From: Streptomyces lincolnensis
Lineage (GTDB): Bacteria > Actinomycetota > Actinomycetes > Streptomycetales > Streptomycetaceae
Assembly (NCBI RefSeq): GCF_021173675.1
Contig: NZ_JAIHON010000001.1
Coordinates: 372,001-436,000, forward strand
Length of the DNA stretch: 64,000 nt
Direction of reading: 5' to 3'
Below the pieces are notes generated by a model. It did not search any database. It was not told the origin of the DNA and worked only from the letters and a program-made list of their open reading frames with translations. Made by a program: the position numbers and the translations under genes. Position 1 is the stretch's first letter, and each line of letters starts with the position of its first letter. This document shows positions 12,751 to 30,147 of the stretch, one piece after another.

Positions 12751-16869
<4,119 letters not shown>

Positions 16870-19295: not shown

Positions 19296-20306
19296 TCAGT
19301 CGGCCTGTCCGTCGGGTGCCCCGTCGGCGTCGGCCCGCAGACCGGTGGACTCGGTGAACGCGCGCCGGTAGGCGGCCGGTGACACGCCGACGACGCGATT
19401 GAAGTTGCGGCGCAAGGTCGTCGCCGTACCCATGCCGACCTGGGTGGCGATGTGCTCGATGCTCTCGTCGGTCGTCTCCAGCAGTTCCTGTGCGCGACGG
19501 ATGCGCTGGGCGAGCAGCCATTGCAGGGGGCTGGTGCCGGTGAGCGCGATGAACTGGCGGCTGAAGTGGCGCAGGCTCATGTTCACCCGGCGTGCGAGCT
19601 CGGCGACCGTGACCGGTTCGTCGAGCCGTTCCCTCGTCCGGTCGAGCAGGGCGGACAGTCCGTACCGGTCGCCGGCGGAGCCCTGGCCGTCGTTGCCGGG
19701 CAACGGGGTGGCGATGAACTGCGCCTGTCCGCCGGCCCGGTGCGGAGCCGCCACGAGCCGTCGCGCCAGCGTGTTGGCCATGACCACGCCGTGGTCGTTG
19801 CGGACCATGTGCAGACAGAGGTCGATCCCGGCGGCCTGGCCCGCGGAGGTGAGCACGTCGCCGTCGTCGATGTACAGCACACCGGGGTCCACCTCGACCT
19901 CCGGATACCGCTCGGCCAGCCGTCCGGTGTACATCCAGTGGGTGGTCGCGCGCCGCCCGTCGAGCAGCCCGGCGGCGGCCAGCACGAAGGCCCCGGTGCA
20001 GATGGAGGCGACCCGCGCGCCCCGGTCGTGCGCCGCTCGTACGGCTGCCACCAGGTCGGCGGGCGGCCGGTCCATGGCCTCGTCACAGGCCGGGACGATC
20101 ACCGTGTCCGCCTTCATCAGGTCATCCAGCGTGTGCGATGCCTCGGAGCGCAGCCAGCCCCCGACATTGGCACCGGGGGACGCGCAGACGGCCAGCTCGT
20201 AGCCGGCCCCGGCCGCCTCCGGATTTCCGGGTCCGAAGATCGTGCAGGGGATGGAGAGCTCGAACAGAGGCATCCCGTCGGTCACGGCCAGCGCCACGGT
20301 GGTCAT
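19296..20306 (-). CDS. GlxA-type AraC-family regulator with DJ-1/PfpI domain
   Basis: 336 residues. N-terminal about 190 residues form a class I glutamine-amidotransferase-like (DJ-1/PfpI) domain with the nucleophile-elbow Cys in VASICTGAFVLAAAGLLDGRRA; the C-terminal part is a double AraC HTH (VTVAELARRVNMSLRHFSRQF and IEHIATQVGMGTATTLRRNF). Regulators of this layout often sense small metabolites. It is divergent from the nine-gene operon starting at 20378 with only 71 nt between starts, so it is the best candidate for that operon's regulator. A TACAAT box 7 nt upstream of ATG 20306 indicates a leaderless transcript. Confidence 0.9.
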   Translation of the reverse strand: MTTVALAVTDGMPLFELSIPCTIFGPGNPEAAGAGYELAVCASPGANVGGWLRSEASHTLDDLMKADTVIVPACDEAMDRPPADLVAAVRAAHDRGARVASICTGAFVLAAAGLLDGRRATTHWMYTGRLAERYPEVEVDPGVLYIDDGDVLTSAGQAAGIDLCLHMVRNDHGVVMANTLARRLVAAPHRAGGQAQFIATPLPGNDGQGSAGDRYGLSALLDRTRERLDEPVTVAELARRVNMSLRHFSRQFIALTGTSPLQWLLAQRIRRAQELLETTDESIEHIATQVGMGTATTLRRNFNRVVGVSPAAYRRAFTESTGLRADADGAPDGQAD

Positions 20307-20377: not shown

Positions 20378-21667
20378 ATGAGCAATCCGACAGCACACAC
20401 GTACCGGGAGACCCACGGCGAGGAAACCCGGCTCTCCGGGGCCACGGGCCGTGCCTGGCTGGCGATCGCCCTGGGGGTCGCGGCCGTCGGCTGGGGCGCC
20501 AACCAGTTCGCGCCGCTGCTGTTGATGTACCGCTCGGAACTGGGCGTCGCGACGACCACGGTGGAGGCGACCTACGCCCTCTACGCGGTCGGACTGATCC
20601 CCGGGCTGCTCCTCGGGGGCCCCTTCTCCGACCGGTACGGCCGCCGTCGGGTGCTCGTACCGGCGCTGATCATCTCGGCGCTCGCCAGCGGACTGCTCAT
20701 GCTGGCCGGATCGGGGCTGAGCTGGCTGTTCGTCGGACGCCTTGTCGCCGGCGCCGCCAGTGGGGCGGCGTTCAGCTCGGGCACCGCGTGGATCAAGGAG
20801 CTCACCGTCAGCGGTTCCGGTCAGGACGAGCACACCGGCGCCCGGCGCGCGACGGTCGGGATGACCACCGGCTTCGCCGTGGGTCCGCTGATCGCGGGTC
20901 TGCTGGCGCAGCTGGCACCGAACCCGGTGGTCAGCTCCTACCTGCCGCATGTGGCGCTCACCCTCGCGACCGTTCCCTTCGTGCTGCGGACCCCCGAGGT
21001 CCACCGGCCGAACGAGGAGGCCAGGCTCTGGTCCCGGCTCCACCTGTCCGAGGCGAGCAGCCGCCGGTTCTGGAGCGTCGTCGCGCCGCTGGCACCCTGG
21101 GTGTTCGGCGCGTCCTCGATCGCCCTGGCTTACCTTCCCGGTCTGGTCCTTGACCGGCTCGGCGACAACGCGCTGATGTTCAGCGCGGTCGTGACCATGC
21201 TGACCATGGTCGCGGGCATCGCGGTGCAGCCCCTGGCGCGTCGGGTCAACCACCCGGACAAGCCCCGTCTGATCGCCACCTCGCTCGGCATCGTGGTGGC
21301 CGGACTGCTGCTCGGCTCGCTGGCCGCGACGACCGTGCACTGGTGGCTCGTCGGCATCGCCGCGCTGGTGCTCGGCGCCGGCTACGGCTGCTGCCTGGTG
21401 TGCGGCCTGATGGAGGTGCAGCGCATGGCGGGCGCCGAGAACCTGGGCAGGCTGACCGCGATCTTCCAGGCGCTCGCCTATCTCGGCTTCGGGGCGCCGT
21501 ATCTGCTGGCCGTGATCGAGCACGTGGTGCCGGCCTCGGAGCTGCTGTTGCTGACCGCCGTGCCGGCGGTGCTCACCCTCGCCTGGACCACCTACCGGGC
21601 CACGCACGGGACGGACCCGGCGAAACAGCGGAAAACGACCGCATCCGGCTCCGCGGTGCGGGGGTAG
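20378..21667 (+). CDS. MFS transporter, first gene of the sulfation/encapsulin-like operon
   Basis: 429-residue membrane protein with about 12 hydrophobic segments and the MFS motif A between helices 2 and 3 (GGPFSDRYGRRRVLV). A soluble lead of about 25 residues precedes the first helix. Start ATG 20378 has GAGGGT about 7 nt upstream. As the first gene of a co-oriented set (next gene 9 nt downstream) it probably exports the cluster product, or imports a precursor; the sequence does not say which. Control is probably by the divergent GlxA-type regulator. Confidence 0.88.
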   Translation: MSNPTAHTYRETHGEETRLSGATGRAWLAIALGVAAVGWGANQFAPLLLMYRSELGVATTTVEATYALYAVGLIPGLLLGGPFSDRYGRRRVLVPALIISALASGLLMLAGSGLSWLFVGRLVAGAASGAAFSSGTAWIKELTVSGSGQDEHTGARRATVGMTTGFAVGPLIAGLLAQLAPNPVVSSYLPHVALTLATVPFVLRTPEVHRPNEEARLWSRLHLSEASSRRFWSVVAPLAPWVFGASSIALAYLPGLVLDRLGDNALMFSAVVTMLTMVAGIAVQPLARRVNHPDKPRLIATSLGIVVAGLLLGSLAATTVHWWLVGIAALVLGAGYGCCLVCGLMEVQRMAGAENLGRLTAIFQALAYLGFGAPYLLAVIEHVVPASELLLLTAVPAVLTLAWTTYRATHGTDPAKQRKTTASGSAVRG

Positions 21668-21676
21668 TCGCACCGG

Positions 21677-22285
21677 ATGGCCGTCATTCCGCGAACCGAT
21701 CACAGCAGTGAGGTGACCGACTTGAGCACGAGTCCGATATGCACGTGCCGGCCCGGTGGAACGGTGTGGCTCATGGGGCTGCCGAGTTCGGGCAAGACGA
21801 CGATCGCGAGGTCGGTCGCGGACCGGCTGCGGGAGGAGCATCGCAGGGTGGAGACGCTGGACGGGGACGAGATCCGCGGCTCGCTCTCGGAGGGGCTGGG
21901 TTTCTCCCGGCAGGACCGGGACAGCAACGTGCGGCGCACCGGACTGGTGGCGGAGATCCTCGCCCGCAACGACGTCCTGGTCCTGGTGCCCGTGATCGCC
22001 CCCTACGCGGACAGCCGCGAGGCGGTACGCGAGCGCCACGAGCGCAGTGGGACGCCCTACCTGGAGGTGTACGTCGCCACCCCCTCCCGGGTGTGCGCCG
22101 ACCGCGACGTGAAGGGCCTGTACGCGCGGCAGGCGGCCGGTGAGTTATCCGGCCTGACCGGTGTCGACGACCCCTACGAGGAACCGGCGAGCCCCGATCT
22201 GGTGCTGGAGACACACCGCCAGGACATCCAGGAGTGCACCGCCGCGCTGCGGGCGCTGCTCGTCGAGAGGGGACTCGCCCGATGA
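21677..22285 (+). CDS. cysC: Adenylyl-sulfate (APS) kinase
   Basis: Phosphorylates APS at the 3'-OH to give PAPS, the sulfate donor of sulfotransferases. P-loop MGLPSSGKTT, APS-binding LDGDEIRGSLSEGLGFSRQDRD, NVRR, and the lid segment DVKGLYARQAAG are intact. As called it has 202 residues; a TTG at 21722 with GAGGTG 6 nt upstream would give 187 and is a serious alternative, since the first 15 residues are not part of the family. It is followed with a 4-nt overlap by cysD, so PAPS synthesis is encoded as one unit. Confidence 0.92.
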   Translation: MAVIPRTDHSSEVTDLSTSPICTCRPGGTVWLMGLPSSGKTTIARSVADRLREEHRRVETLDGDEIRGSLSEGLGFSRQDRDSNVRRTGLVAEILARNDVLVLVPVIAPYADSREAVRERHERSGTPYLEVYVATPSRVCADRDVKGLYARQAAGELSGLTGVDDPYEEPASPDLVLETHRQDIQECTAALRALLVERGLAR

Positions 22286-23232
22286 CCACCACGACGACAC
22301 GGACGACCGAGGACCGGACGGCGGACGACGCCGGGCTCCACACGCTCACGCACCTGGACATCCTGGAGGCGGAGGCGGTGCACATCTTCCGGGAGGTGGC
22401 CGGGGAGCTGGAGCGCCCGGTGATCCTCTTCTCGGGCGGCAAGGACTCCGCCGTGATGCTGCACCTGGCGCTCAAGGCGTTCGCGCCCGCGCCGCTGCCC
22501 TTCGGGCTGCTCCATGTGGACACCGGCCACAACTTCCCCGAGGTGCTGGCGTACCGGGACCGCACCGTCGAGGAACACGGACTGCGGCTGCGGGTGGCCC
22601 GCGTGCAGGACTTCATCGACTCCGGTGAGCTGCGTGAGCGTCCGGACGGGACCCGTAACCCCCTCCAGACCGTGCCGCTGCTGCACGCCATCGGCGAGGG
22701 CCGCCACGACGCGGTGTTCGGCGGCGGACGCCGGGACGAGGAGAAGGCACGCGCCAAGGAGCGGGTGTTCTCGCTGCGCGACGAGTTCGGCGGCTGGGAT
22801 CCGCGCCGGCAGCGGCCGGAACTGTGGCAGCTGTACAACGGCCGGTGCTCCCCCGGCGAGCACACACGGGTCTTCCCGCTGTCGAACTGGACCGAGCTCG
22901 ACGTGTGGCAGTACATCGCGCGCGAGAGGATCGAACTGCCGGCGATCTACTACGCGCATGAACGATTCCTCTTCTTCCGCGACGGCATGTGGCTCGCCCC
23001 CGGTGAGTGGGGCGGCCCGAAGGACGGCGAACGGACCGCGACCCGCCGGGTGCGCTACCGCACCGTGGGCGACATGTCCTGCACGGGAGCGGTCGATTCG
23101 GACGCCGACACCGTCGAGCGGGTCATCGAGGAGATCGCCGTGGCCCGGCTGACCGAACGCGGTGCGACCCGGGCCGACGACAAGATGTCCGAGGCCGCCA
23201 TGGAGGACCGCAAGCGCGAGGGGTACTTCTAG
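22282..23232 (+). CDS. cysD: Sulfate adenylyltransferase subunit 2
   Basis: 316-residue catalytic subunit of ATP sulfurylase, which makes APS from ATP and sulfate with CysN. PP-loop VILFSGGKDSAVMLHLALKA, then VDTGHNFPEVLAYRD, FGGGRRDEEKARAKER and the C-terminal DDKMSEAAMEDRKREGYF are family hallmarks. A Thr-rich, probably disordered N-terminus precedes the domain. ATG overlaps the cysC stop (ATGA); cysN starts 2 nt after its stop. No cysH, sulfite reductase or sulfate transporter gene is nearby, which points to PAPS for sulfation rather than assimilation. Confidence 0.95.
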   Translation: MTTTTTRTTEDRTADDAGLHTLTHLDILEAEAVHIFREVAGELERPVILFSGGKDSAVMLHLALKAFAPAPLPFGLLHVDTGHNFPEVLAYRDRTVEEHGLRLRVARVQDFIDSGELRERPDGTRNPLQTVPLLHAIGEGRHDAVFGGGRRDEEKARAKERVFSLRDEFGGWDPRRQRPELWQLYNGRCSPGEHTRVFPLSNWTELDVWQYIARERIELPAIYYAHERFLFFRDGMWLAPGEWGGPKDGERTATRRVRYRTVGDMSCTGAVDSDADTVERVIEEIAVARLTERGATRADDKMSEAAMEDRKREGYF

Positions 23233-23234
23233 CC

Positions 23235-24479
23235 ATGACCGTCGACACACTTCGGTTCGCCACCGCGGGCTCCGTCGACGACGGCAAGTCCACCCTGGTC
23301 GGACGACTGATGCACGACTCAAAGTCGGTCCTCGCCGACCAGCTGGAAGCCGTCGAGCGGGCCTCCCGCACCCGCGGCAAGGACACTCCGGACCTCGCGA
23401 TGCTCACCGACGGCCTGCGCGCCGAGCGGGAGCAGGGCATCACCATCGATGTCGCCCACCGCTACTTCGCCACCCCGCACCGCCGGTTCATCCTGGCCGA
23501 CACCCCGGGGCATGTGCAGTACACCCGCAACATGGTCACCGGCGCCTCGACCGCCGAGCTGGCCGTCGTCCTGGTGGACGCGCGGGCCGGCGTGGTCGAG
23601 CAGACGCGCCGGCACGCCGCGGTGGCCGCCCTGCTGCGGGTCCCGCACGTGGTACTGGCCGTCAACAAGATGGACCTGGTCGACCACGACGAGACGGTCT
23701 TCGGCCGCGTCGCCGAGGAGTTCGGTGCCTACGCCGCCTCTCTCGGGGTCCCCGAGATCACCGCCGTTCCCATCTCCGCGCTGCACGGGGACAACGTGGT
23801 GACCGCCTCGCCGAACATGCCCTGGTACGGCGGCCCGACCGTGCTCGGGCACCTGGAGAGCGTGGACGTCGACCACGACCCGACGCAGGACGTGGCCCGG
23901 TTCCCGGTCCAGTACGTCATCCCCGCGCCGCCCGAGGAGCCCTCCGGCCGCGGCTGCGCGGGCCAGGTGGCCTCCGGTGTGCTGCGGGTGGGCGAGCCCG
24001 TGACGGTACTGCCGAGCGGGCGCCGCAGCACCATCGCGGGCCTGGACGTACTCGGCCGGTCCGTCGACCTGGTCCGGGCTCCCCAGTCGGTCACCGTCCG
24101 GCTGACCGACGATCCGGACGTCTCCCGCGGTGACATGATCGTGCCCGAGGACACCTCGGTGACGCCGACGCGGCATCTGACCGCGACCGTCTGCCATCTG
24201 CACGACACCCCGCTCGAACCCGGCTCCCGGGTGCTGCTCAAGCACACGACACGGACCGTCAGGGCCGTCGTCGAGGAGATCCCGTCCCGCCTCGCGCTGG
24301 ACGACCTCTCCCAGCACCCGGCTCCCGGGCACCTGGCGGCCAACGACATCGGCCGGGTGGTGCTGCGGCTGTCCGAACCGCTGCCCGTCGACCCCTACGC
24401 CGACTCACGGCGCACCGGTTCCTTCCTGCTCATCGACCCCGGCGACGGCACGACCGTCACGGCCGGGATGGTGTGCTGA
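23235..24479 (+). CDS. cysN: Sulfate adenylyltransferase GTPase subunit 1
   Basis: 414-residue GTPase that drives CysD. EF-Tu-like G motifs: G1 GSVDDGKST, G2 region ending EQGITIDVAHRYF, G3 DTPGH, G4 NKMD and G5 SALHG. Two beta-barrel domains follow. Length is that of stand-alone CysN; there is no C-terminal APS-kinase domain, which is encoded by the separate cysC. Gap to the next gene is 49 nt with its own ribosome-binding site. Part of the cysC-cysD-cysN cassette inside the encapsulin-like operon. Confidence 0.95.
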   Translation: MTVDTLRFATAGSVDDGKSTLVGRLMHDSKSVLADQLEAVERASRTRGKDTPDLAMLTDGLRAEREQGITIDVAHRYFATPHRRFILADTPGHVQYTRNMVTGASTAELAVVLVDARAGVVEQTRRHAAVAALLRVPHVVLAVNKMDLVDHDETVFGRVAEEFGAYAASLGVPEITAVPISALHGDNVVTASPNMPWYGGPTVLGHLESVDVDHDPTQDVARFPVQYVIPAPPEEPSGRGCAGQVASGVLRVGEPVTVLPSGRRSTIAGLDVLGRSVDLVRAPQSVTVRLTDDPDVSRGDMIVPEDTSVTPTRHLTATVCHLHDTPLEPGSRVLLKHTTRTVRAVVEEIPSRLALDDLSQHPAPGHLAANDIGRVVLRLSEPLPVDPYADSRRTGSFLLIDPGDGTTVTAGMVC

Positions 24480-24528
24480 CCCGTCGCCGCTCCCCCCACT
24501 TCGCCGCCTCACGCAGAGGGTGATGAGC

Positions 24529-25245
24529 ATGTCCCACTTGGTGATCTTCGACTGCGACGGCGTCCTGGTGGACAGCGAGACCCTGTCCGCCGAGGTCATG
24601 CGGACCATGGCGCGGGAACTCGGCGCCTCCTTCACCGGCGACTCCGCGCTCGCGTTCATCCAGGGCCGCAAGGTGGCCGAATGGACGGCCGAGCTCGGCG
24701 AGATGGTCGGCCGTGAACTGCCCGAGGAGTTCGTCCCGGAGTTCCGGAAGCGCTGCACGGACGCGTTCGACCGGGATCTCGTCGCCACGGACGGGATCGA
24801 GGACGTGCTCACCGCGATGGAACCCCCCTTCTGCTGCGCCTCCAGCGCGCCGATGCAGAAGATCCTTCACGTTCTCGGCCACACCGGGCTGCTGCACTTC
24901 TTCCCGGAGGGCCGCCTCTACAGCGCCTACGAAGTGAAGGTCTGGAAGCCGGACCCCGGACTGTTTCTGCACGCGGCCGCGGCGCACGGCGTTCCGCCGG
25001 AGCGATGTGCGGTCGTGGAGGACAGCGCACCGGGCGTACGGGCGGGTATACGGGCGGGAATGACCGTCTTCGCCTACGCGCCCGACGGAATCCCGGCCAT
25101 CGGCGAGGGAGCCGGACAACCCGGCACCTCCGAAGAGCCCGAGGGTCACCTCACGACGTTCACCTCCATGCGGGAGCTGCCGTCATTGCTACGCCGATGG
25201 CGCTCGACGCTCCCCGACCACACCAGTCCCCTACAGCACCCCTGA
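24529..25245 (+). CDS. HAD-superfamily phosphatase/phosphomutase (subfamily IA)
   Basis: 238 residues. Catalytic motif I FDCDGVLVDSE (nucleophile D8, acid D10), motif II CCASSAP, motif III Lys in KVWKPDPG and motif IV VVEDSAPG are all intact; the cap domain is helical. Similar proteins dephosphorylate sugar phosphates or act as beta-phosphoglucomutase-type enzymes. Of three in-frame starts (GTG 24520, ATG 24523, ATG 24529), the last is best spaced from AGAGGG. About 40 low-complexity C-terminal residues (EEPEGHLTTF to SPLQHP) extend past the fold. With the transaldolase next to it, a sugar-phosphate-derived intermediate is a reasonable inference. Confidence 0.85.
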   Translation: MSHLVIFDCDGVLVDSETLSAEVMRTMARELGASFTGDSALAFIQGRKVAEWTAELGEMVGRELPEEFVPEFRKRCTDAFDRDLVATDGIEDVLTAMEPPFCCASSAPMQKILHVLGHTGLLHFFPEGRLYSAYEVKVWKPDPGLFLHAAAAHGVPPERCAVVEDSAPGVRAGIRAGMTVFAYAPDGIPAIGEGAGQPGTSEEPEGHLTTFTSMRELPSLLRRWRSTLPDHTSPLQHP

Positions 25246-25258
25246 AAGGGATGCCCTG

Positions 25259-26572
25259 ATGTCTGTTGTGCACCGATCCCACCTCCGCGCGCCCGCCGCG
25301 AGGCACACTCGGGAAACCGACGGCTCCACCGGCCTGAGCGTTCTGGAAAGGCTCCAGCGGACCAACCGTTCCGCCGAGATCTGGTGGGACTCCCCGCCCC
25401 TGGACTTTCCGGCCTGGCGCGACGAGGTGCTCAGCCGTGCTCCCGCTCCGGCGGTTCGCAAGCGATGGGCCGCCCAGTTCGAGCGGTTCATGACTCCGAA
25501 CGACCCCGAGGGGTCCTTAGTGCGCGGGGTGACGACGAATCCGTCACTCATCGCCAAGAGCGTCCTCAACGCACCCCAGAAGTGGTCCCGCGAGGTCCGG
25601 CGGCAGGCCACACAGCAGAAGACGTTCGACCCGGAGTCGGTGTTCCGGCTGATCTACCGCGAGGTCGTCGCGCAGTCGGCGATCGCCATGGTGCCGATGT
25701 GGCAGCAGACCGACGGCCGGTACGGCTGGGTGTCGGCCCAGCTCGACCCGCGCAGCATGTTCGACCCGGACAGGATGCTCGACGAGGCGCTGACCCTGGC
25801 CCAGCAGAGCCCCAACGTGATGGTCAAGGTGCCGGGCACGCCCGCGGGGTACGAGGTGATCAGGGAACTGGTCGCCAGGGCCGTCTCGATCAACAACACG
25901 CTCACCTACACGGTGCCGCAGTTCCTTGCCTGCGTCTCCGCGGTGGAGGACGGACTCGCGGCGGCGGAGCGGGCCGGCATCGGCACCGACCGCTGGCGTG
26001 CGGTGATCACGCACATGATCGGCCGCTACGGCTCGCACGGCGACCTGCTCAAGGAAGCCGGCGAACTCGGTGTCGAGCTCGGCCCGCTGGACGTGCGCTG
26101 GGCGGAGGTCGCGGTGCTGAAGCGGATCCAGCGGATCCTCGGTACCCGTCACCACCCGGTGAAGATGCTGCTGTCCAGCCTGGAGGTCGAGGACCCGTGC
26201 GTCGGCACGGACGTGGTGAGCATGCATCTGGAGCAGACGGCCGGGGCGGACATCGCCTACACCTGCAAACCGGCCTTCGTCGAGGCGACCATGCGACGCG
26301 AGGAGGACCTGGTCGGCTTCGCCCCGGACGCGATCGACCAGCCGGTGCCCCCGGACGTCCTGGCCCGGCTCAACCGGCTGCCGTACTTCCGGCGGGCCGT
26401 CGAACCGGACGGTATGCGGCCGGAGCAGTTCGCCGATCACGGCGCCTTCGTCACCACCCGCTCCGAGGTGAACCACAACACGCGCCGGCTGATCGACTTC
26501 ATAGAGCACCACATCGACGAACTGCCCGTGTCCGTGCGGTACGCCGGGTACGCGGGCGGACGCCGCTCCTGA
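25259..26572 (+). CDS. Long transaldolase-family protein
   Basis: 437 residues, against about 220 (FSA) or 317 (TalB) for classical members. Conserved parts: RGVTTNPSLI (90-98 region), catalytic Lys K190 in NVMVKVPGTPAGY, and SINNTLTYTVPQFLA, the equivalent of the TalB NLTLLFS strand. Family members transfer a dihydroxyacetone unit through a Schiff base on this Lys. The first 25 or so residues (Arg/His/Ala/Thr-rich) precede the family core LSVLERLQR and could be a targeting tail. Transaldolases in some antibiotic clusters build unusual sugars, which fits a biosynthetic role. Gaps of 13 nt before and 32 nt after. Confidence 0.85.
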   Translation: MSVVHRSHLRAPAARHTRETDGSTGLSVLERLQRTNRSAEIWWDSPPLDFPAWRDEVLSRAPAPAVRKRWAAQFERFMTPNDPEGSLVRGVTTNPSLIAKSVLNAPQKWSREVRRQATQQKTFDPESVFRLIYREVVAQSAIAMVPMWQQTDGRYGWVSAQLDPRSMFDPDRMLDEALTLAQQSPNVMVKVPGTPAGYEVIRELVARAVSINNTLTYTVPQFLACVSAVEDGLAAAERAGIGTDRWRAVITHMIGRYGSHGDLLKEAGELGVELGPLDVRWAEVAVLKRIQRILGTRHHPVKMLLSSLEVEDPCVGTDVVSMHLEQTAGADIAYTCKPAFVEATMRREEDLVGFAPDAIDQPVPPDVLARLNRLPYFRRAVEPDGMRPEQFADHGAFVTTRSEVNHNTRRLIDFIEHHIDELPVSVRYAGYAGGRRS

Positions 26573-26604
26573 CCAGCCCACCGACAGCGAGGAAGGACGG
26601 ACAG

Positions 26605-27753
26605 ATGTCCCTGGACCATCCGGACCGCGAGAAGCCGCTCATCATGGTGGTGGGCTGCGGCGACCTGGCCGCGCGGCTGCTCAGCATGCTGCTGCACACA
26701 CCGGACACCAACCGGGTCGTGCTGGCCGGCCGGGACGTGGAGAAGATGACCAGGACGGTGAACCTCGCCAGGTTCACCGCGACGAACCTCGGTCTCATCC
26801 CCGAGGTGACCGTCGAACGGATCGACCTCGACGACGTCGCCGCGACCGCCGGGACTCTGGCGCGGGTGCGGCCGGACATCGTCTTCATGGCGGCGTCCCT
26901 TCAGTCGTGGCGGATCATCACGAAGCTGCCCAAGGAGCACTTCGAAGCGCTGGACGAGGCCCAGTTCGGCCCCTGGCTGCCCATGCACCTGACGCTGAAC
27001 CACCGGCTCGCCGCGGCGGTCCGCGAATCCGGCACGGCACCGAAGGTGCTCAACGCGGCCTTCCCGGACGCGGTCGGCCCGATCCTGGACAAGGTCGGGC
27101 TGGCCCCCACGGCGGGCATCGGCAACGTCGCCAACATCATCCCGGCGCTGACCTTCGGCTACGCCATCGAGGCGGGCGTCGATCCGTCCTCGGTGGAACT
27201 GCGCCTGGTCGCCCAGCACTACTTCAGCCACTACGTCCCCCGGTTCGGCAACGAGGGCAACGGGCGCTACCACATGTCGGCGACCGCGCACGGCAAGCCT
27301 CTCGACGACGTCCCGCACGGGGCGGTCTTCGCGCACCTCAGCGGCCGGCTGCGCAGGCTCGGCGGAGACGCCGGCCAGTTGCTCACCGCCTCCTCGGCGA
27401 TGCGCGTCCTGCACGCGATGGCGACCGACAGCGGGGTGCGGGCCCACGCCCCCGCCCCGAACGGGCTGCCCGGCGGCTACCCGGTGCGGGTCGGCCGGGA
27501 CGGCCCGGCCTTGGACCTGCCGGACGGGATGCCGGTGGACACCGCCGTCGCGATCAACGAGGAGTGCCAGCGGGCGGACGGCATCGACCGCATCGACGAC
27601 GACGGGACGGTGACCTTCGCCGAACGCGAGATGTCGATCATGAAGCGGCTCCTCGGCTACGAGTGCCGGACCATGCCGCTGGCGGAGTCCGCGGACTGGG
27701 CCGAGGAGCTCGACGCCAAGTACCGCGCGTACGCGGCACGCGTCACCGGCTGA
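26605..27753 (+). CDS. Saccharopine-dehydrogenase-like NAD(P)-binding protein
   Basis: 382 residues. The N-terminus has a Rossmann dinucleotide fold: PLIMVVGCGDLAARLLSML (GxGxxA at 17-22) ending in an acidic/Arg strand VVLAGRD, which suggests NADP, then a VERIDLDD/RPDIVFMAAS strand pair as in saccharopine dehydrogenases. I do not recognise the C-terminal half, which includes NAAFPDAVGPILDK and HYFSHYVPRFGNEGNGRYH. Probably an oxidoreductase on a carbonyl or imine of the pathway intermediate; the substrate is unknown. Start ATG 26605 has AGGAAGGACGG upstream. It lies directly between the transaldolase and the capsid-like gene. Confidence 0.7.
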   Translation: MSLDHPDREKPLIMVVGCGDLAARLLSMLLHTPDTNRVVLAGRDVEKMTRTVNLARFTATNLGLIPEVTVERIDLDDVAATAGTLARVRPDIVFMAASLQSWRIITKLPKEHFEALDEAQFGPWLPMHLTLNHRLAAAVRESGTAPKVLNAAFPDAVGPILDKVGLAPTAGIGNVANIIPALTFGYAIEAGVDPSSVELRLVAQHYFSHYVPRFGNEGNGRYHMSATAHGKPLDDVPHGAVFAHLSGRLRRLGGDAGQLLTASSAMRVLHAMATDSGVRAHAPAPNGLPGGYPVRVGRDGPALDLPDGMPVDTAVAINEECQRADGIDRIDDDGTVTFAEREMSIMKRLLGYECRTMPLAESADWAEELDAKYRAYAARVTG

Positions 27754-27830
27754 GCCGGCGGCCGAGGCGCGGCCCGTCCCCGAACGACCGCACTCCTGAC
27801 CTGTTCCACCTCACCCCCATGGGAGACGAG

Positions 27831-28718
27831 ATGACCACCCAGCAGCTCGGCAGTGAGATCGAGATCCCCTACGAGGACTCGTACAACGAGAACCTCACCC
27901 CCGGCGAGGACTTCGCGCGGTGCGTCGCGTCGAGGACCGACGAGGACGAGGTCGTCGTCCCGTTCCACGCCTACCTCCCCGCGTCCTTCCCCCTGTTGAA
28001 GACCCGGCCCCGCTACATGGTCCGGCATCTGCTCAAGGTGGGTCGGGTCCGCGAGGGACACGGCGACTACCTGGAGGAGTTCACCCGGGTGGACGTGGCA
28101 CCGAGCGGCATCGCGTACCAGGCGACGCCGGAGTCCACCTTCGGCTCCGCCCTGCGGACGGCCGGCTTCACCGACGTGGAGATGGCGCTGAACGTGCCCG
28201 TGGAGTTCGTCCGCAAGCCCGGATTACTGGCCAGCTTCATCGACTACCGCATGTTCGTCCGCATGTGGACCCAGGAGAACGAGATCCTGCTGTACGGCAG
28301 CAAGGACGGCGCGGTCGAGGGCCTGCTCAACATGAAGGGCCTGCGCACCCGGTCCGGCCGTGGGGACGTCTTCCGGGCGCTGTCCCTCGCGGCCTGCGAG
28401 GTCGAGGAGACCGGCGGCTCCTGCGACGGCATCGTCATCCACCCGGAGCTGTACTGGCTCGCCGCGGAGAACGGGTTCCTGGAGAGGTTCAAGAGTGCGG
28501 GCATCACCGTGTCGCGCACCCGCATGATGCCCCGGGGCAGCGCCCTGCTCGGCGACTTCCGCGCGGGCGCGACCCTGCTCAATCCCAACATCTCCACCCT
28601 CACGCTCAGCAAGGACCCGCGGGCGGCGGACCGACGGATCATCACCGCGCGCACCAGGATGGGACTCGCGGTGCACGTTCCCCAGCACTTCGTCCTCCAC
28701 CACCACGAGGAGGACTGA
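27831..28718 (+). CDS. HK97-fold capsid-like protein, probable natural-product encapsulin
   Basis: 295 residues with no signal or membrane segment. The layout is that of encapsulin/HK97 shell proteins: N-terminal arm (1-45), extended E-loop region (about 58-112), spine helix (about 130-155) with TQENEILLYG and VEGLLN, comparable to the EDEVIFRG...GLL stretch of T. maritima encapsulin, then an A-domain with GIVIHPELYWLAAENG, ALLGDFRAGATLL, ITARTRMGLAVHVPQHFVL. No phage gene is near. It sits 77 nt after the Rossmann-protein gene and 3 nt before a sulfotransferase gene. Encapsulins embedded in biosynthetic clusters (called Family 3) have been proposed from computational surveys. GGGAG precedes ATG 27831. 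Assignment is by my own alignment by eye, not a search. Confidence 0.72.
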   Translation: MTTQQLGSEIEIPYEDSYNENLTPGEDFARCVASRTDEDEVVVPFHAYLPASFPLLKTRPRYMVRHLLKVGRVREGHGDYLEEFTRVDVAPSGIAYQATPESTFGSALRTAGFTDVEMALNVPVEFVRKPGLLASFIDYRMFVRMWTQENEILLYGSKDGAVEGLLNMKGLRTRSGRGDVFRALSLAACEVEETGGSCDGIVIHPELYWLAAENGFLERFKSAGITVSRTRMMPRGSALLGDFRAGATLLNPNISTLTLSKDPRAADRRIITARTRMGLAVHVPQHFVLHHHEED

Positions 28719-28721
28719 GCG

Positions 28722-29636
28722 GTGCCCGCCGGCAAGCCGCAGATCCTGTACATCACGGGCATGATGCGCTGTGGCAGCACCTTCGTGGGCAACGTCCTCA
28801 ACGAACTGCCGGGCGCGGTGCACATCGGTGAGCGGTACTTCCTGTGGAAGAACGCACTCCTGCGGGACGGTACGAACTCCTTGTGCGGCTGCGGACTTGA
28901 CCTGCTGAAGTGCGAGGTGTGGTCCGGTCATCTCGGCGAGGTGGACGACCGCAAGGCCCGACGGCTGTGGGGTCTTCAGGAACGTCACCTGCGAACGCGT
29001 CACACCGCCGCACGCCTGGCGGAGTCGCGCGGACGCAGGGCCGCCCCGGCCGAGGTGGGTGAACTCGGTGACGCGATCGCCGCGGTCCACCACGGCATCA
29101 CGGCCGCGAACGGCCCCGGGCTGATCATCGACAGTTCGAAGAACGCGGCGGACGCGGCGGTGCTCGCCCGGCGTCAGGACCTCGACGTCCGGCTGCTGCA
29201 CATCGTGCGGGACCCGCGGGCCACCGTGTCGTCGTACCTGTCGCCGAAGCAGTACCTGGAGCGGATGAGTGCGGCGAGGACCCTGTCCTACTGGGCGGGA
29301 TTCAACCTGGCGTCGGAGGCCGTGGGCCGGTCACTGGGCGACGGACGGTATCTGCGGATCCGCTACGAGGACTTCGTCCGGCGGCCCCGCGCGGTCACCG
29401 GGGACATCGCCCGGTTCGCGGGACACGAGGACATCTCGGCGATCGGGTTCGACGAGGACTCCTCCGTCCTGCTCGGCACCAACCACACCATCACCGGCAA
29501 CCCCGACCGGCTGCGACAGGGCCGAGTGCAGATCAAACGGCACGAGCCCTGGCGAGAGAGCATGTCGCGGCCCGGGAAGCTGGCGGCCTTCGCCGGGGTG
29601 GCGCCCCTGATGCTCAGGTACGGCTATCGCGGTTAG
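28722..29636 (+). CDS. PAPS-dependent sulfotransferase
   Basis: 304-residue enzyme that transfers sulfate from PAPS to a hydroxyl or amine. 5'-phosphosulfate loop MMRCGSTFVGN (residues 14-24), 3'-phosphate site IVRDPRATVSSY (161-172), and near the C-terminus NHTITGNPDRLRQGRVQI as in actinobacterial sulfotransferases. A CGCG...C cysteine cluster at 55-64 is also typical. GTG start at 28722 lies 3 nt after the capsid-like stop with GAGGAGGA inside the preceding gene, so the two proteins are probably co-translated and made in proportion. PAPS would come from cysCDN of the same operon. Its end overlaps the convergent macrodomain gene by 23 nt. Confidence 0.9.
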   Translation: MPAGKPQILYITGMMRCGSTFVGNVLNELPGAVHIGERYFLWKNALLRDGTNSLCGCGLDLLKCEVWSGHLGEVDDRKARRLWGLQERHLRTRHTAARLAESRGRRAAPAEVGELGDAIAAVHHGITAANGPGLIIDSSKNAADAAVLARRQDLDVRLLHIVRDPRATVSSYLSPKQYLERMSAARTLSYWAGFNLASEAVGRSLGDGRYLRIRYEDFVRRPRAVTGDIARFAGHEDISAIGFDEDSSVLLGTNHTITGNPDRLRQGRVQIKRHEPWRESMSRPGKLAAFAGVAPLMLRYGYRG

Positions 29637-30147
29637 GCGTGCGAAGCCGCGCGGCGAACGCCTCGTGGGACCGCTCGTCGAAGAGGACGAACCTGACCTC
29701 CTCGACGGCGGTCCGCGTGCTCCGTACCGTCTCCACCGCGATCCTCGCCGCATCGTCCATCGGCCAGCCGTAGATCCCGGCGGACACGGCCGGGAAGGCG
29801 ACGGTACGGGCGCCCAGCTCGTCGGCGACACGCAGGGACGCGCGGTAGCAGGACGCCAACAGCTCGGAGCGATCCTCCTGTTGGCTGTACCGCGGACCGA
29901 CCGTGTGGATCACCCAGCGGGCGTCCAGCTCACCCGCGGTCGTCGCGACGGCCTGGCCGGTGGGGAGGCCCTTGCCATAGTGACCGGCCCGGAGTCTGCG
30001 GCAGTCCGCGAGGATCGCGGGACCGCCCCGCCGGTGGATGGCCCCGTCGACCCCGCCGCCGCCCAGCAGCGAGGAGTTGGCCGCGTTGACGATCGCGTCG
30101 GCGCTGACGCGGGTGATGTCGCCCTGGGTGAGGGTGAGGGTGGTCAT
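29614..30147 (-). CDS. Macrodomain protein (O-acetyl-ADP-ribose deacetylase type)
   Basis: 177-residue cytosolic protein made of one MacroD-type macrodomain: [21 protein letters not shown] opening, [14 protein letters not shown] (catalytic loop with Asp), VIHTVGP, and SAGIYGWP at the diphosphate loop. Such proteins hydrolyse O-acetyl-ADP-ribose or mono-ADP-ribosyl esters. ATG overlaps the stop of the upstream FAD oxidoreductase (ATGA), so both are one operon. The 3' end overlaps the sulfotransferase gene tail-to-tail by 23 nt. Confidence 0.92.

What the first reader, a model, noticed from the sequence alone, without database searches (positions are those of the whole stretch)
20378..29636. 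Nine-gene operon joining PAPS synthesis, sulfotransferase and an encapsulin-like shell protein
MFS, cysC, cysD, cysN, HAD, transaldolase, Rossmann protein, HK97-fold protein and sulfotransferase lie on one strand with gaps of 0-78 nt and several overlaps. Seen: the order, spacing and motifs. Known: CysDNC make PAPS, sulfotransferases use it; encapsulins in biosynthetic clusters have been proposed. Inferred: a pathway making a sulfated metabolite in or on a protein nanocompartment, with export by the MFS protein.
Basis: partly seen in the sequence, partly recalled or inferred. Interest (0 to 1): 0.95.

Follow-up and report, generated by a model that had tools for sequence, protein, structure and literature searches.

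The report
Protein-shell operon for a sulfated sugar
A Streptomyces operon encodes a Family 3 encapsulin (a bacterial protein predicted to have the fold of a virus coat and to form a hollow shell) next to a sulfotransferase, a complete set of sulfate-activating genes and relatives of sugar-building enzymes, and it would likely make and export a small sulfated sugar-like compound with the sulfation step probably in or on the shell; it matters because I found no paper that shows what this shell family does.

Summary
Nine co-directional genes (20378-29636) have gaps of at most 77 nt; the same set recurs in three other Streptomyces genomes and, reordered, in Nocardia tenerifensis. The HK97-like protein is a Family 3 encapsulin (NCBIfam 333 bits, cut-off 180; model closest to HK97 prohead). 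The general idea is published: Family 3 shells in biosynthetic clusters, often with sulfotransferases (PMC8346489). Added here: (1) The transaldolase-linked shells fall in one well-supported clade; the operon holds no peptide-building gene. (2) In 74 of 74 non-redundant actinobacterial Family 3 loci a sulfotransferase (either of two families) lies within four genes of the shell, although other pathway genes differ. The window's sulfotransferase subfamily is almost confined to such loci (9 of 10 hits in 382 genus genomes). (3) A sister cluster has the same transaldolase-HAD-dehydrogenase core and PAPS genes but no shell, and another sulfotransferase family. Best reading: a sugar-type pathway whose sulfation step is coupled to the shell, shell plus sulfotransferase being a portable module. 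Shell assembly, cargo, product and chemistry are untested; cargo-tag evidence is inconclusive. Verdict: new variant of a known kind.

The parts
19296..20306 (-). AraC/DJ-1-type transcriptional regulator, divergent from the operon; probable cluster regulator
   Evidence: HTH_18 5e-22, DJ-1_PfpI 4e-18; adjoins the MFS gene in 4 of 4 Streptomyces type-A loci
20378..21667 (+). MFS transporter, likely exporter of the product
   Evidence: MFS_1 8e-34; same gene in all five type-A loci
21677..22285 (+). cysC, adenylyl-sulfate kinase
   Evidence: TIGR00455 182.8 bits, cut-off 138.7
22282..23232 (+). cysD, sulfate adenylyltransferase small subunit
   Evidence: TIGR02039 435.9 bits, cut-off 396.6; one of three copies over the cut-off in the genome
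23235..24479 (+). cysN, sulfate adenylyltransferase large subunit
   Evidence: TIGR02034 507.7 bits, cut-off 336.1
24523..25245 (+). HAD-family phosphatase-like hydrolase
   Evidence: PF00702 7e-18; best NCBIfam hit 6-phosphogluconate phosphatase, below its cut-off
25259..26572 (+). transaldolase-like enzyme: Schiff-base Lys190 kept, transaldolase acid/base Glu replaced by Gln161
   Evidence: PF00923 2e-27; alignment to solved transaldolases; columns in relatives
26605..27753 (+). NAD(P)-type oxidoreductase with lactate/malate dehydrogenase fold, no named family
27831..28718 (+). Family 3 encapsulin shell protein (alternative start 27819)
28722..29636 (+). sulfotransferase of a subfamily almost confined to Family 3 shell loci in the genus
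   Evidence: PF13469 52.3 bits, cut-off 27

Best explanation
This operon would likely make a small sulfated sugar- or polyol-type compound, with its sulfotransferase probably working in or on a shell that the neighbouring Family 3 encapsulin is predicted to form. Shown: gene content, order, conservation, the predicted HK97 fold, and the pairing of shell and sulfotransferase across loci. Inferred from families: CysD/CysN and CysC turn sulfate and ATP into PAPS; the transaldolase-like enzyme forms a C-C bond through a Lys190 Schiff base, perhaps as an aldolase because the transaldolase Glu is a Gln; the HAD protein removes a phosphate; the dehydrogenase-fold protein oxidises or reduces a carbonyl/hydroxyl; the sulfotransferase sulfates a hydroxyl; the MFS protein exports the product. 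Further inferred: shell plus sulfotransferase is a portable module joined to different upstream pathways, and the shell's job is tied to sulfo transfer (housing the enzyme, or holding a reactive intermediate).
For: All nine genes recur in four Streptomyces genomes (window included) and, reordered, in Nocardia tenerifensis. In a tree of 82 shells the 10 labelled as transaldolase/dehydrogenase-linked (5 read in loci, 5 inferred from equal contig lengths) fall in one clade of 13, support 100/99; the other three have no checked context. Sulfotransferase within four genes of the shell in 74 of 74 non-redundant loci, adjacent in 57: 59 of 74 match Sulfotransfer_3 and 15 of 74 Sulfotransfer_5, agreeing with my two gene clusters of 59 and 15. 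The next most frequent single gene cluster within four genes, an SDR, occurs in 51 of 74. Reverse test: the window's sulfotransferase finds 10 of 382 genus genomes at 1e-12; 9 hits lie next to a shell gene, the tenth (36% identity) has none in the stretch read. Background: Sulfotransfer_3 over its cut-off in 6 of 21 relatives (Sulfotransfer_5 not measured). Shell and sulfotransferase distances correlate (rho 0.88, 32 loci), shell and cysD much less (0.36), shell and cysN 0.51. Five genus genomes hold a sister cluster with homologous HAD, transaldolase and dehydrogenase genes and, where the stretch reaches, MFS (4 of 5) and complete CysCDN (3 of 5), but no shell there, with a Sulfotransfer_5, an SDR and an N-methyltransferase-like gene instead. 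CysD and CysC each occur three times over the cut-off in the genome, so this set is additional to the others.
Against: No transcript, protein or product data. The shell-free sister cluster shows that the transaldolase core does not need a shell. The universal pairing joins two unrelated sulfotransferase families into one function, while other genes were counted as single clusters, so other functions met by unrelated families (oxidoreductases, transporters) were not given the same chance. No cargo tag could be fixed: the sulfotransferase of this type has no tail (2-4 residues after its last conserved motif), and the N-terminal extension of the transaldolase-like protein is long only in the Streptomyces loci. 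Shell distances follow the SDR (rho 0.94, 53 loci) and the AMP-ligase (0.80, 49 loci) too, where these exist. The 74 loci include close relatives and are all Actinomycetota; the published Mesorhizobium class is not described with a sulfotransferase in the section read. The dehydrogenase assignment rests on fold alone; a profile comparison with seven malate dehydrogenases was not significant. The position of FSA Tyr131 appears to be Met, so aldolase activity is a guess. Two of the five genomes with the shell-free cluster (G248, G025) carry a shell of another type elsewhere.
Confidence: 0.5

Rival explanations
1. The transaldolase-like enzyme (with the dehydrogenase) is the likely cargo, and the shell holds a reactive aldehyde or ketone; the sulfotransferase works outside.
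For: In the four Streptomyces loci the transaldolase-like protein carries about 20 extra N-terminal residues: 40-42 residues before the conserved WWDS motif, against 16-20 in 103 of 116 other listed relatives. Sequestration of aldehydes or ketones by Family 3 shells is proposed in PMC8346489.
Against: The extension is shorter (27) in P0243, which I infer to be shell-linked, and absent in the NCBI-called Nocardia protein P0345 (13); three relatives of unknown context are long too (P0244 44, P0297 54, P0303 39). 69 of 74 Family 3 loci have no member of this transaldolase cluster in the stretch read, but all have a sulfotransferase.
Confidence: 0.2
2. Sulfate is a leaving group, not a decoration: the sulfotransferase would activate a hydroxyl, and the shell would contain the electrophile formed when sulfate leaves.
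For: A common other locus type (representative L060) has LysW carrier protein, LysX, ArgC-like reductase and split transketolase, which resembles, from recall only, the vazabitide/azinomycin route in which an aziridine forms by sulfate elimination. The one studied Family 3 cluster makes chloromethyl-pipecolic peptides. Sulfotransferase is the only function among those I counted that all 74 loci share.
Against: No homologue of the aziridine-forming enzymes was sought; no amine-forming or cyclase family was named among the nine genes.
Confidence: 0.15
3. The shell gene is a stray phage capsid or a relic without function in this operon.
For: The fold is that of HK97 capsids, and 26 further genus genomes have matches to the profile below its cut-off, of unknown nature apart from one.
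Against: No PHROG hit for the shell, and no phage structural gene among the neighbours scanned; intact, and 84-98% identical to the other Streptomyces type-A shells; one clade tied to one operon type.
Confidence: 0.05
4. The operon is one unit for a sulfated metabolite, but the shell stores or protects the product, or has a role in regulation, and houses no enzyme.
For: No reliable cargo tag was found in the operon proteins compared.
Against: Gives no reason for a sulfotransferase subfamily that is almost confined to shell loci.
Confidence: 0.1

Closest known systems
Family 3 (natural product) encapsulin clusters, PMC8346489
   Same: Shell protein of the same curated family; inside a metabolic gene cluster; sulfotransferase next to the shell, as the paper reports for many.
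   Different: No NRPS, PKS, LysW-type carrier, ligase or SDR in the operon; transaldolase, HAD and dehydrogenase-fold genes instead. Transaldolase is not mentioned in the paper's main text; its supplement could not be read.
Chloromyxamide cluster of Myxococcus (the one studied Family 3 cluster, as told in PMC8346489)
   Same: Carries a Family 3 encapsulin of unknown role.
   Different: Makes chlorinated pipecolic-acid peptides; this operon has no peptide machinery.
Transaldolase / fructose-6-phosphate aldolase (PF00923)
   Same: Family match, Schiff-base Lys, TTNP and N-x-T motifs.
   Different: 77-87 residues longer than the 350-360-residue transaldolases of the PDB that it matches; Gln where they have Glu (as in FSA Gln59), and apparently Met where FSA has Tyr131.
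Shell-free sister cluster in five genus genomes (L133-L137)
   Same: Homologous HAD, transaldolase-like (55-57%) and dehydrogenase-fold genes and, where the stretch reaches, CysCDN, with an MFS protein.
   Different: No encapsulin in the stretch; Sulfotransfer_5, SDR, N-methyltransferase-like gene and SARP regulator instead; the MFS protein falls in another cluster.

Membership tests
Family 3 encapsulin shell protein | Match over the curated score of NCBIfam NF041188 | tested here: met
   333 bits against 180; NCBI names the 98% identical S. lincolnensis protein so
Family 3 encapsulin shell protein | HK97 fold | tested here: met
Family 3 encapsulin shell protein | Lies in a metabolic gene cluster, not in a phage | tested here: met
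   Neighbours scanned are enzymes and regulators; no PHROG hit for the shell
Family 3 encapsulin shell protein | Self-assembly into an icosahedral shell | not testable with these tools
   needs expression and microscopy
Family 3 encapsulin shell protein | Dedicated cargo loading | tested here: inconclusive
   terminal extensions compared; no tag constant in this type
Published Family 3 operon classes (peptide-type clusters) | NRPS/PKS, amino-group carrier or other peptide machinery in the cluster | tested here: not met
   None among the nine genes; the carrier cluster occurs in 32 of 74 loci but in none of the five transaldolase ones. Supplementary class figures not seen
PAPS synthesis CysD-CysN-CysC | All three subunits over curated scores | tested here: met
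   TIGR02039, TIGR02034, TIGR00455
PAPS-dependent sulfotransferase | Sulfotransferase Pfam family over cut-off | tested here: met
   PF13469 52.3 bits, cut-off 27; activity and PAPS use not tested
Transaldolase superfamily PF00923 | Family match and Schiff-base lysine | tested here: met
   96.6 bits, cut-off 27; Lys190 aligned
TalB-type transaldolase | Catalytic Glu (E96 of TalB, recalled number) | tested here: not met
   Gln161 aligned to that Glu of 3r5e; Gln in 10 of 10 sequences aligned, window included
Fructose-6-phosphate aldolase | Gln59 and Tyr131 (residues as in PMC13259622) | tested here: inconclusive
   Gln met; Tyr131 position reads Met by my motif alignment, not by structure
Saccharopine dehydrogenase | PF03435 over its cut-off | tested here: not met
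   15.9 bits against 25.1
Lactate/malate dehydrogenase | Fold | tested here: met
Lactate/malate dehydrogenase | Sequence family membership | tested here: inconclusive
   hhalign probability 2.8 with seven MDH sequences of the genus and order; no NCBIfam hit up to E 0.1

The most novel reading that the evidence does not exclude
Actinobacterial Family 3 encapsulins are sulfotransfer chambers: the shell and its own sulfotransferase form one portable module that has been plugged into several unrelated pathways, here an aldolase-type sugar pathway without any peptide machinery, and in at least some of them sulfation activates a hydroxyl so that the shell contains a reactive electrophile.
Probability: 0.2. 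Interest if true: 0.88.

Novelty: new variant of a known kind. Interest (0 to 1): 0.62.

Why it matters
My searches pointed to no paper that shows a function or cargo for a Family 3 encapsulin: only two papers of the library hold the phrase 'family 3 encapsulin', and the listings named no other (open-licence papers only; one search listed 25 of 4,960). If shell and sulfotransferase are a fixed pair across different pathways, the cargo question narrows to one enzyme and one reaction, and this nine-gene operon, short and free of giant synthases, is a convenient system to test it by expression in a laboratory Streptomyces. It would also give a natural nanocompartment for sulfation chemistry.

Tried and rejected
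Prophage capsid: rejected (no phage structural gene among the neighbours scanned). Saccharopine dehydrogenase for the Rossmann protein: the Pfam hit is below its cut-off and the predicted fold is that of LDH/MDH. Cargo tag on the transaldolase-like N terminus: looked good on 5 shell-linked against 4 shell-free proteins (a fifth shell-free one was cut short by my gene call) but weakened by wider data, so not claimed. Cargo tag on the sulfotransferase C terminus: absent in this operon type. Shared terminal 5-mers between proteins of one locus: only scattered matches that I took as chance or as shared domain motifs. Function from plasmid neighbourhoods of distant dehydrogenase and transaldolase relatives: Mesorhizobium, Shinella, Planktothrix, Sinorhizobium and Martelella contexts gave no clear pathway; no shell relative on plasmids at 1e-5. 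Wider taxonomic sample for the transaldolase: 1 of 394 class genomes at 1e-60, the window's own. Pfam on another Family 3 shell (L059): only a sub-threshold Linocin_M18 match. Promoter/terminator scan: nothing above shuffles. Literature: searches returned nothing; some searches gave listings. Read beyond listings: PMC8346489 (passages, section 9) and PMC13259622 (passages). Limits: 26 of the 42 genus genomes with any NF041188 match are under the curated score; one, a split shell gene (G145), was looked at, the rest were not and are not counted. In one search only the best six candidates of each genome were scored, and the shell genome G385, whose sulfotransferase matches at 53%, is not among the listed hits; whether it was in that draw of 382 is not shown. 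The vazabitide/azinomycin comparison and the TalB residue number are recalled.
Full report
Observation. The nine genes at 20378-29636 are intact and lie on the + strand. Gaps are 9, -4, 2, 43, 13, 32, 77 and 3 nt, so there is one overlap, not several. Profiles name MFS, CysC, CysD, CysN, HAD, TAL_FSA and Sulfotransfer_3. The shell protein has no Pfam hit up to E 0.1 but scores 333 bits with NCBIfam NF041188, family 3 encapsulin, cut-off 180. NCBI already names the 98% identical protein of Streptomyces lincolnensis a family 3 encapsulin.

Conservation of the operon. In a genus sample, 16 of 392 genomes (own included) have a shell over the curated score; 42 of 392 have any match at 1e-3. I fetched the 15 other neighbourhoods plus one with a split shell gene. 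tblastn with the nine proteins found the whole set in G314, G154 and G031 besides the window (cysN of G154 in two pieces); in G154 and G031 the MFS gene lies behind the sulfotransferase on the other strand. A scan of one genome per species (GTDB r220) gave 66 named shell loci. Among them Nocardia tenerifensis (L057) has MFS, transaldolase, dehydrogenase, shell, sulfotransferase, cysD, a CysN-CysC fusion (619 residues, both parts matched) and HAD in one row. Proteins of Amycolatopsis minnesotensis, of an unclassified Nocardia and of three contigs without an organism name also appear to pair the shell with the dehydrogenase or transaldolase; I infer this from equal contig lengths, not from reading the contigs.

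Shell tree. I built a tree of 82 shells: the 74 of the loci below and 8 of the proteins. The other three, P0122, P0125 and P0131, have no checked context; because of them the label needs 4 changes on the tree. The program warns that some long branches meet, the Nocardia pair among them, and that P0131 is long and of odd composition.

Other Family 3 loci. I clustered the genes of 74 non-redundant loci: the window, 15 genus stretches and 58 named loci; 8 duplicates were dropped, and the split-shell locus of G145 was left out. Gene calls came from a codon-usage script. A sulfotransferase lies within four genes of the shell in 74 of 74, next to it in 57. Scanned one by one, 59 of 74 match Sulfotransfer_3 and 15 of 74 Sulfotransfer_5, in line with two gene clusters of 59 and 15. 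The next most frequent single cluster within four genes is an SDR, in 51 of 74. This comparison is uneven: I joined two sulfotransferase families by function but counted other genes cluster by cluster. The split-shell locus, read in pieces, also has a Sulfotransfer_5 relative beside it. The upstream pathways differ, judged from one representative each: LysW, LysX, ArgC-like, split transketolase and kinase/M20 genes in L060; a carboxylic-acid-reductase-like protein, aldo-keto reductase and DAO in L045; a DUF4135/LanC-like protein and a DegT aminotransferase in L085; and transaldolase, HAD and dehydrogenase here. cysD occurs in 33 of 74, cysN in 32, cysC in 19 and the carrier protein in 32. The loci are all Actinomycetota, include close relatives and some short stretches, so 74 is not a count of independent events.

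Reverse tests. The window's sulfotransferase finds 10 of 382 genus genomes at 1e-12 (six candidates scored per genome). Nine hits lie next to a shell gene at the coordinates; the tenth (G121, 36%) has no shell within the stretch read. The shell genome G385 is not among the hits; whether it was drawn is not shown. As background, Sulfotransfer_3 is over its cut-off in 6 of 21 relatives; Sulfotransfer_5 was not measured. The transaldolase-like protein finds 9 of 392 genus genomes with long matches at 55% identity or more; the other matches listed are at about 30-35% over part of the protein. Four of the nine are this operon. The other five (55-57%) are a sister cluster with HAD, transaldolase, dehydrogenase, a Sulfotransfer_5-type enzyme, an SDR, a glycine/sarcosine N-methyltransferase-like gene and a SARP regulator, without a shell (families named from L136, the rest by clustering). 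An MFS gene is seen in four of the five and complete cysC, cysD and cysN in three (L133, L135, L136); L137 ends within cysC, and L134 ends before them. Two of these five genomes (G248, G025) carry a shell of another type elsewhere. In shell loci with a Sulfotransfer_3-type enzyme and cysD (32), shell and sulfotransferase distances correlate at rho 0.88, shell and cysD at 0.36; with cysN (31 loci) shell and cysN reach 0.51, with the SDR (53) 0.94, with the AMP-ligase (49) 0.80. Common descent of neighbours inflates such values; cysD serves as the internal contrast.

Cargo. Streptomyces shell-linked transaldolase-like proteins have 40-42 residues before the WWDS motif; 103 of 116 other listed relatives have 16-20. 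But P0243, inferred to be shell-linked, has 27, Nocardia P0345 has 13, and P0244, P0297 and P0303, whose context is unknown, have 39-54. The sulfotransferase of this type ends 2-4 residues after its last conserved motif, whereas some other loci carry long tails with similar ends. No cargo is assigned.

Verdict. The finding is real and conserved. The general idea, Family 3 shells beside sulfotransferases in biosynthetic clusters, is published (PMC8346489, section 9 read). The operon type with a transaldolase is not mentioned in that main text; its supplement could not be read. The added results are the distinct clade, the shell-sulfotransferase pairing in all loci examined, and the shell-free sister cluster. 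Product, chemistry, shell assembly and cargo remain predictions.

Noticed in passing
L133-L137 (G248, G001, G025, G044, G119): Shell-free sister cluster with the same transaldolase/HAD/dehydrogenase core, Sulfotransfer_5, SDR, glycine/sarcosine N-methyltransferase-like gene and SARP regulator; L133, L134 and L136 carry a second transaldolase-like gene, and L133 and L134 also MetK, MTHFR and a PfkB kinase. Product unknown to me.
   Followed up: partly
L031-L035, L050, L054, L056, L060-L062, L094, L095, L100 (sulfotransferase C termini): In 14 of the 59 Sulfotransfer_3-type enzymes beside a shell the protein ends in a tail, often low-complexity and of very different length, with similar last residues within groups (PLWPGE-type, RGEA-type, WTSD/WTWD-type); this looks like a cargo tag, though most loci lack it.
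   Followed up: partly
L046 (G145): Shell gene matched in two pieces in different frames beside a Sulfotransfer_5 relative: pseudogene or sequencing error; not mended.
   Followed up: no
L037 11299-12806 (G154): cysN reads in two overlapping pieces in different frames; frameshift or sequencing error; not mended.
   Followed up: no
L175 7324-11345 (G000:C33): A further CysC/CysD/CysN region in the same genome lies next to a weak sulfotransferase relative and a NMT1-like binding protein: a second possible sulfation locus.
   Followed up: no
L138, L141 and plasmid hits H1-H11: Distant relatives (about 42-46%) of the dehydrogenase-fold protein occur on rhizobial plasmids, in the two read beside alanine racemase and a HAD hydrolase; the family has no name.
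   Followed up: partly
window 29614-30147: A macro-domain gene on the other strand overlaps the last 23 nt of the sulfotransferase gene.
   Followed up: no
window 12751-16659: Large family 2 beta-galactosidase with a laminin-G-like domain, upstream of the cluster; no relative in the stretches read of G154 and G031, while that of G314 ends too early to tell.
   Followed up: no
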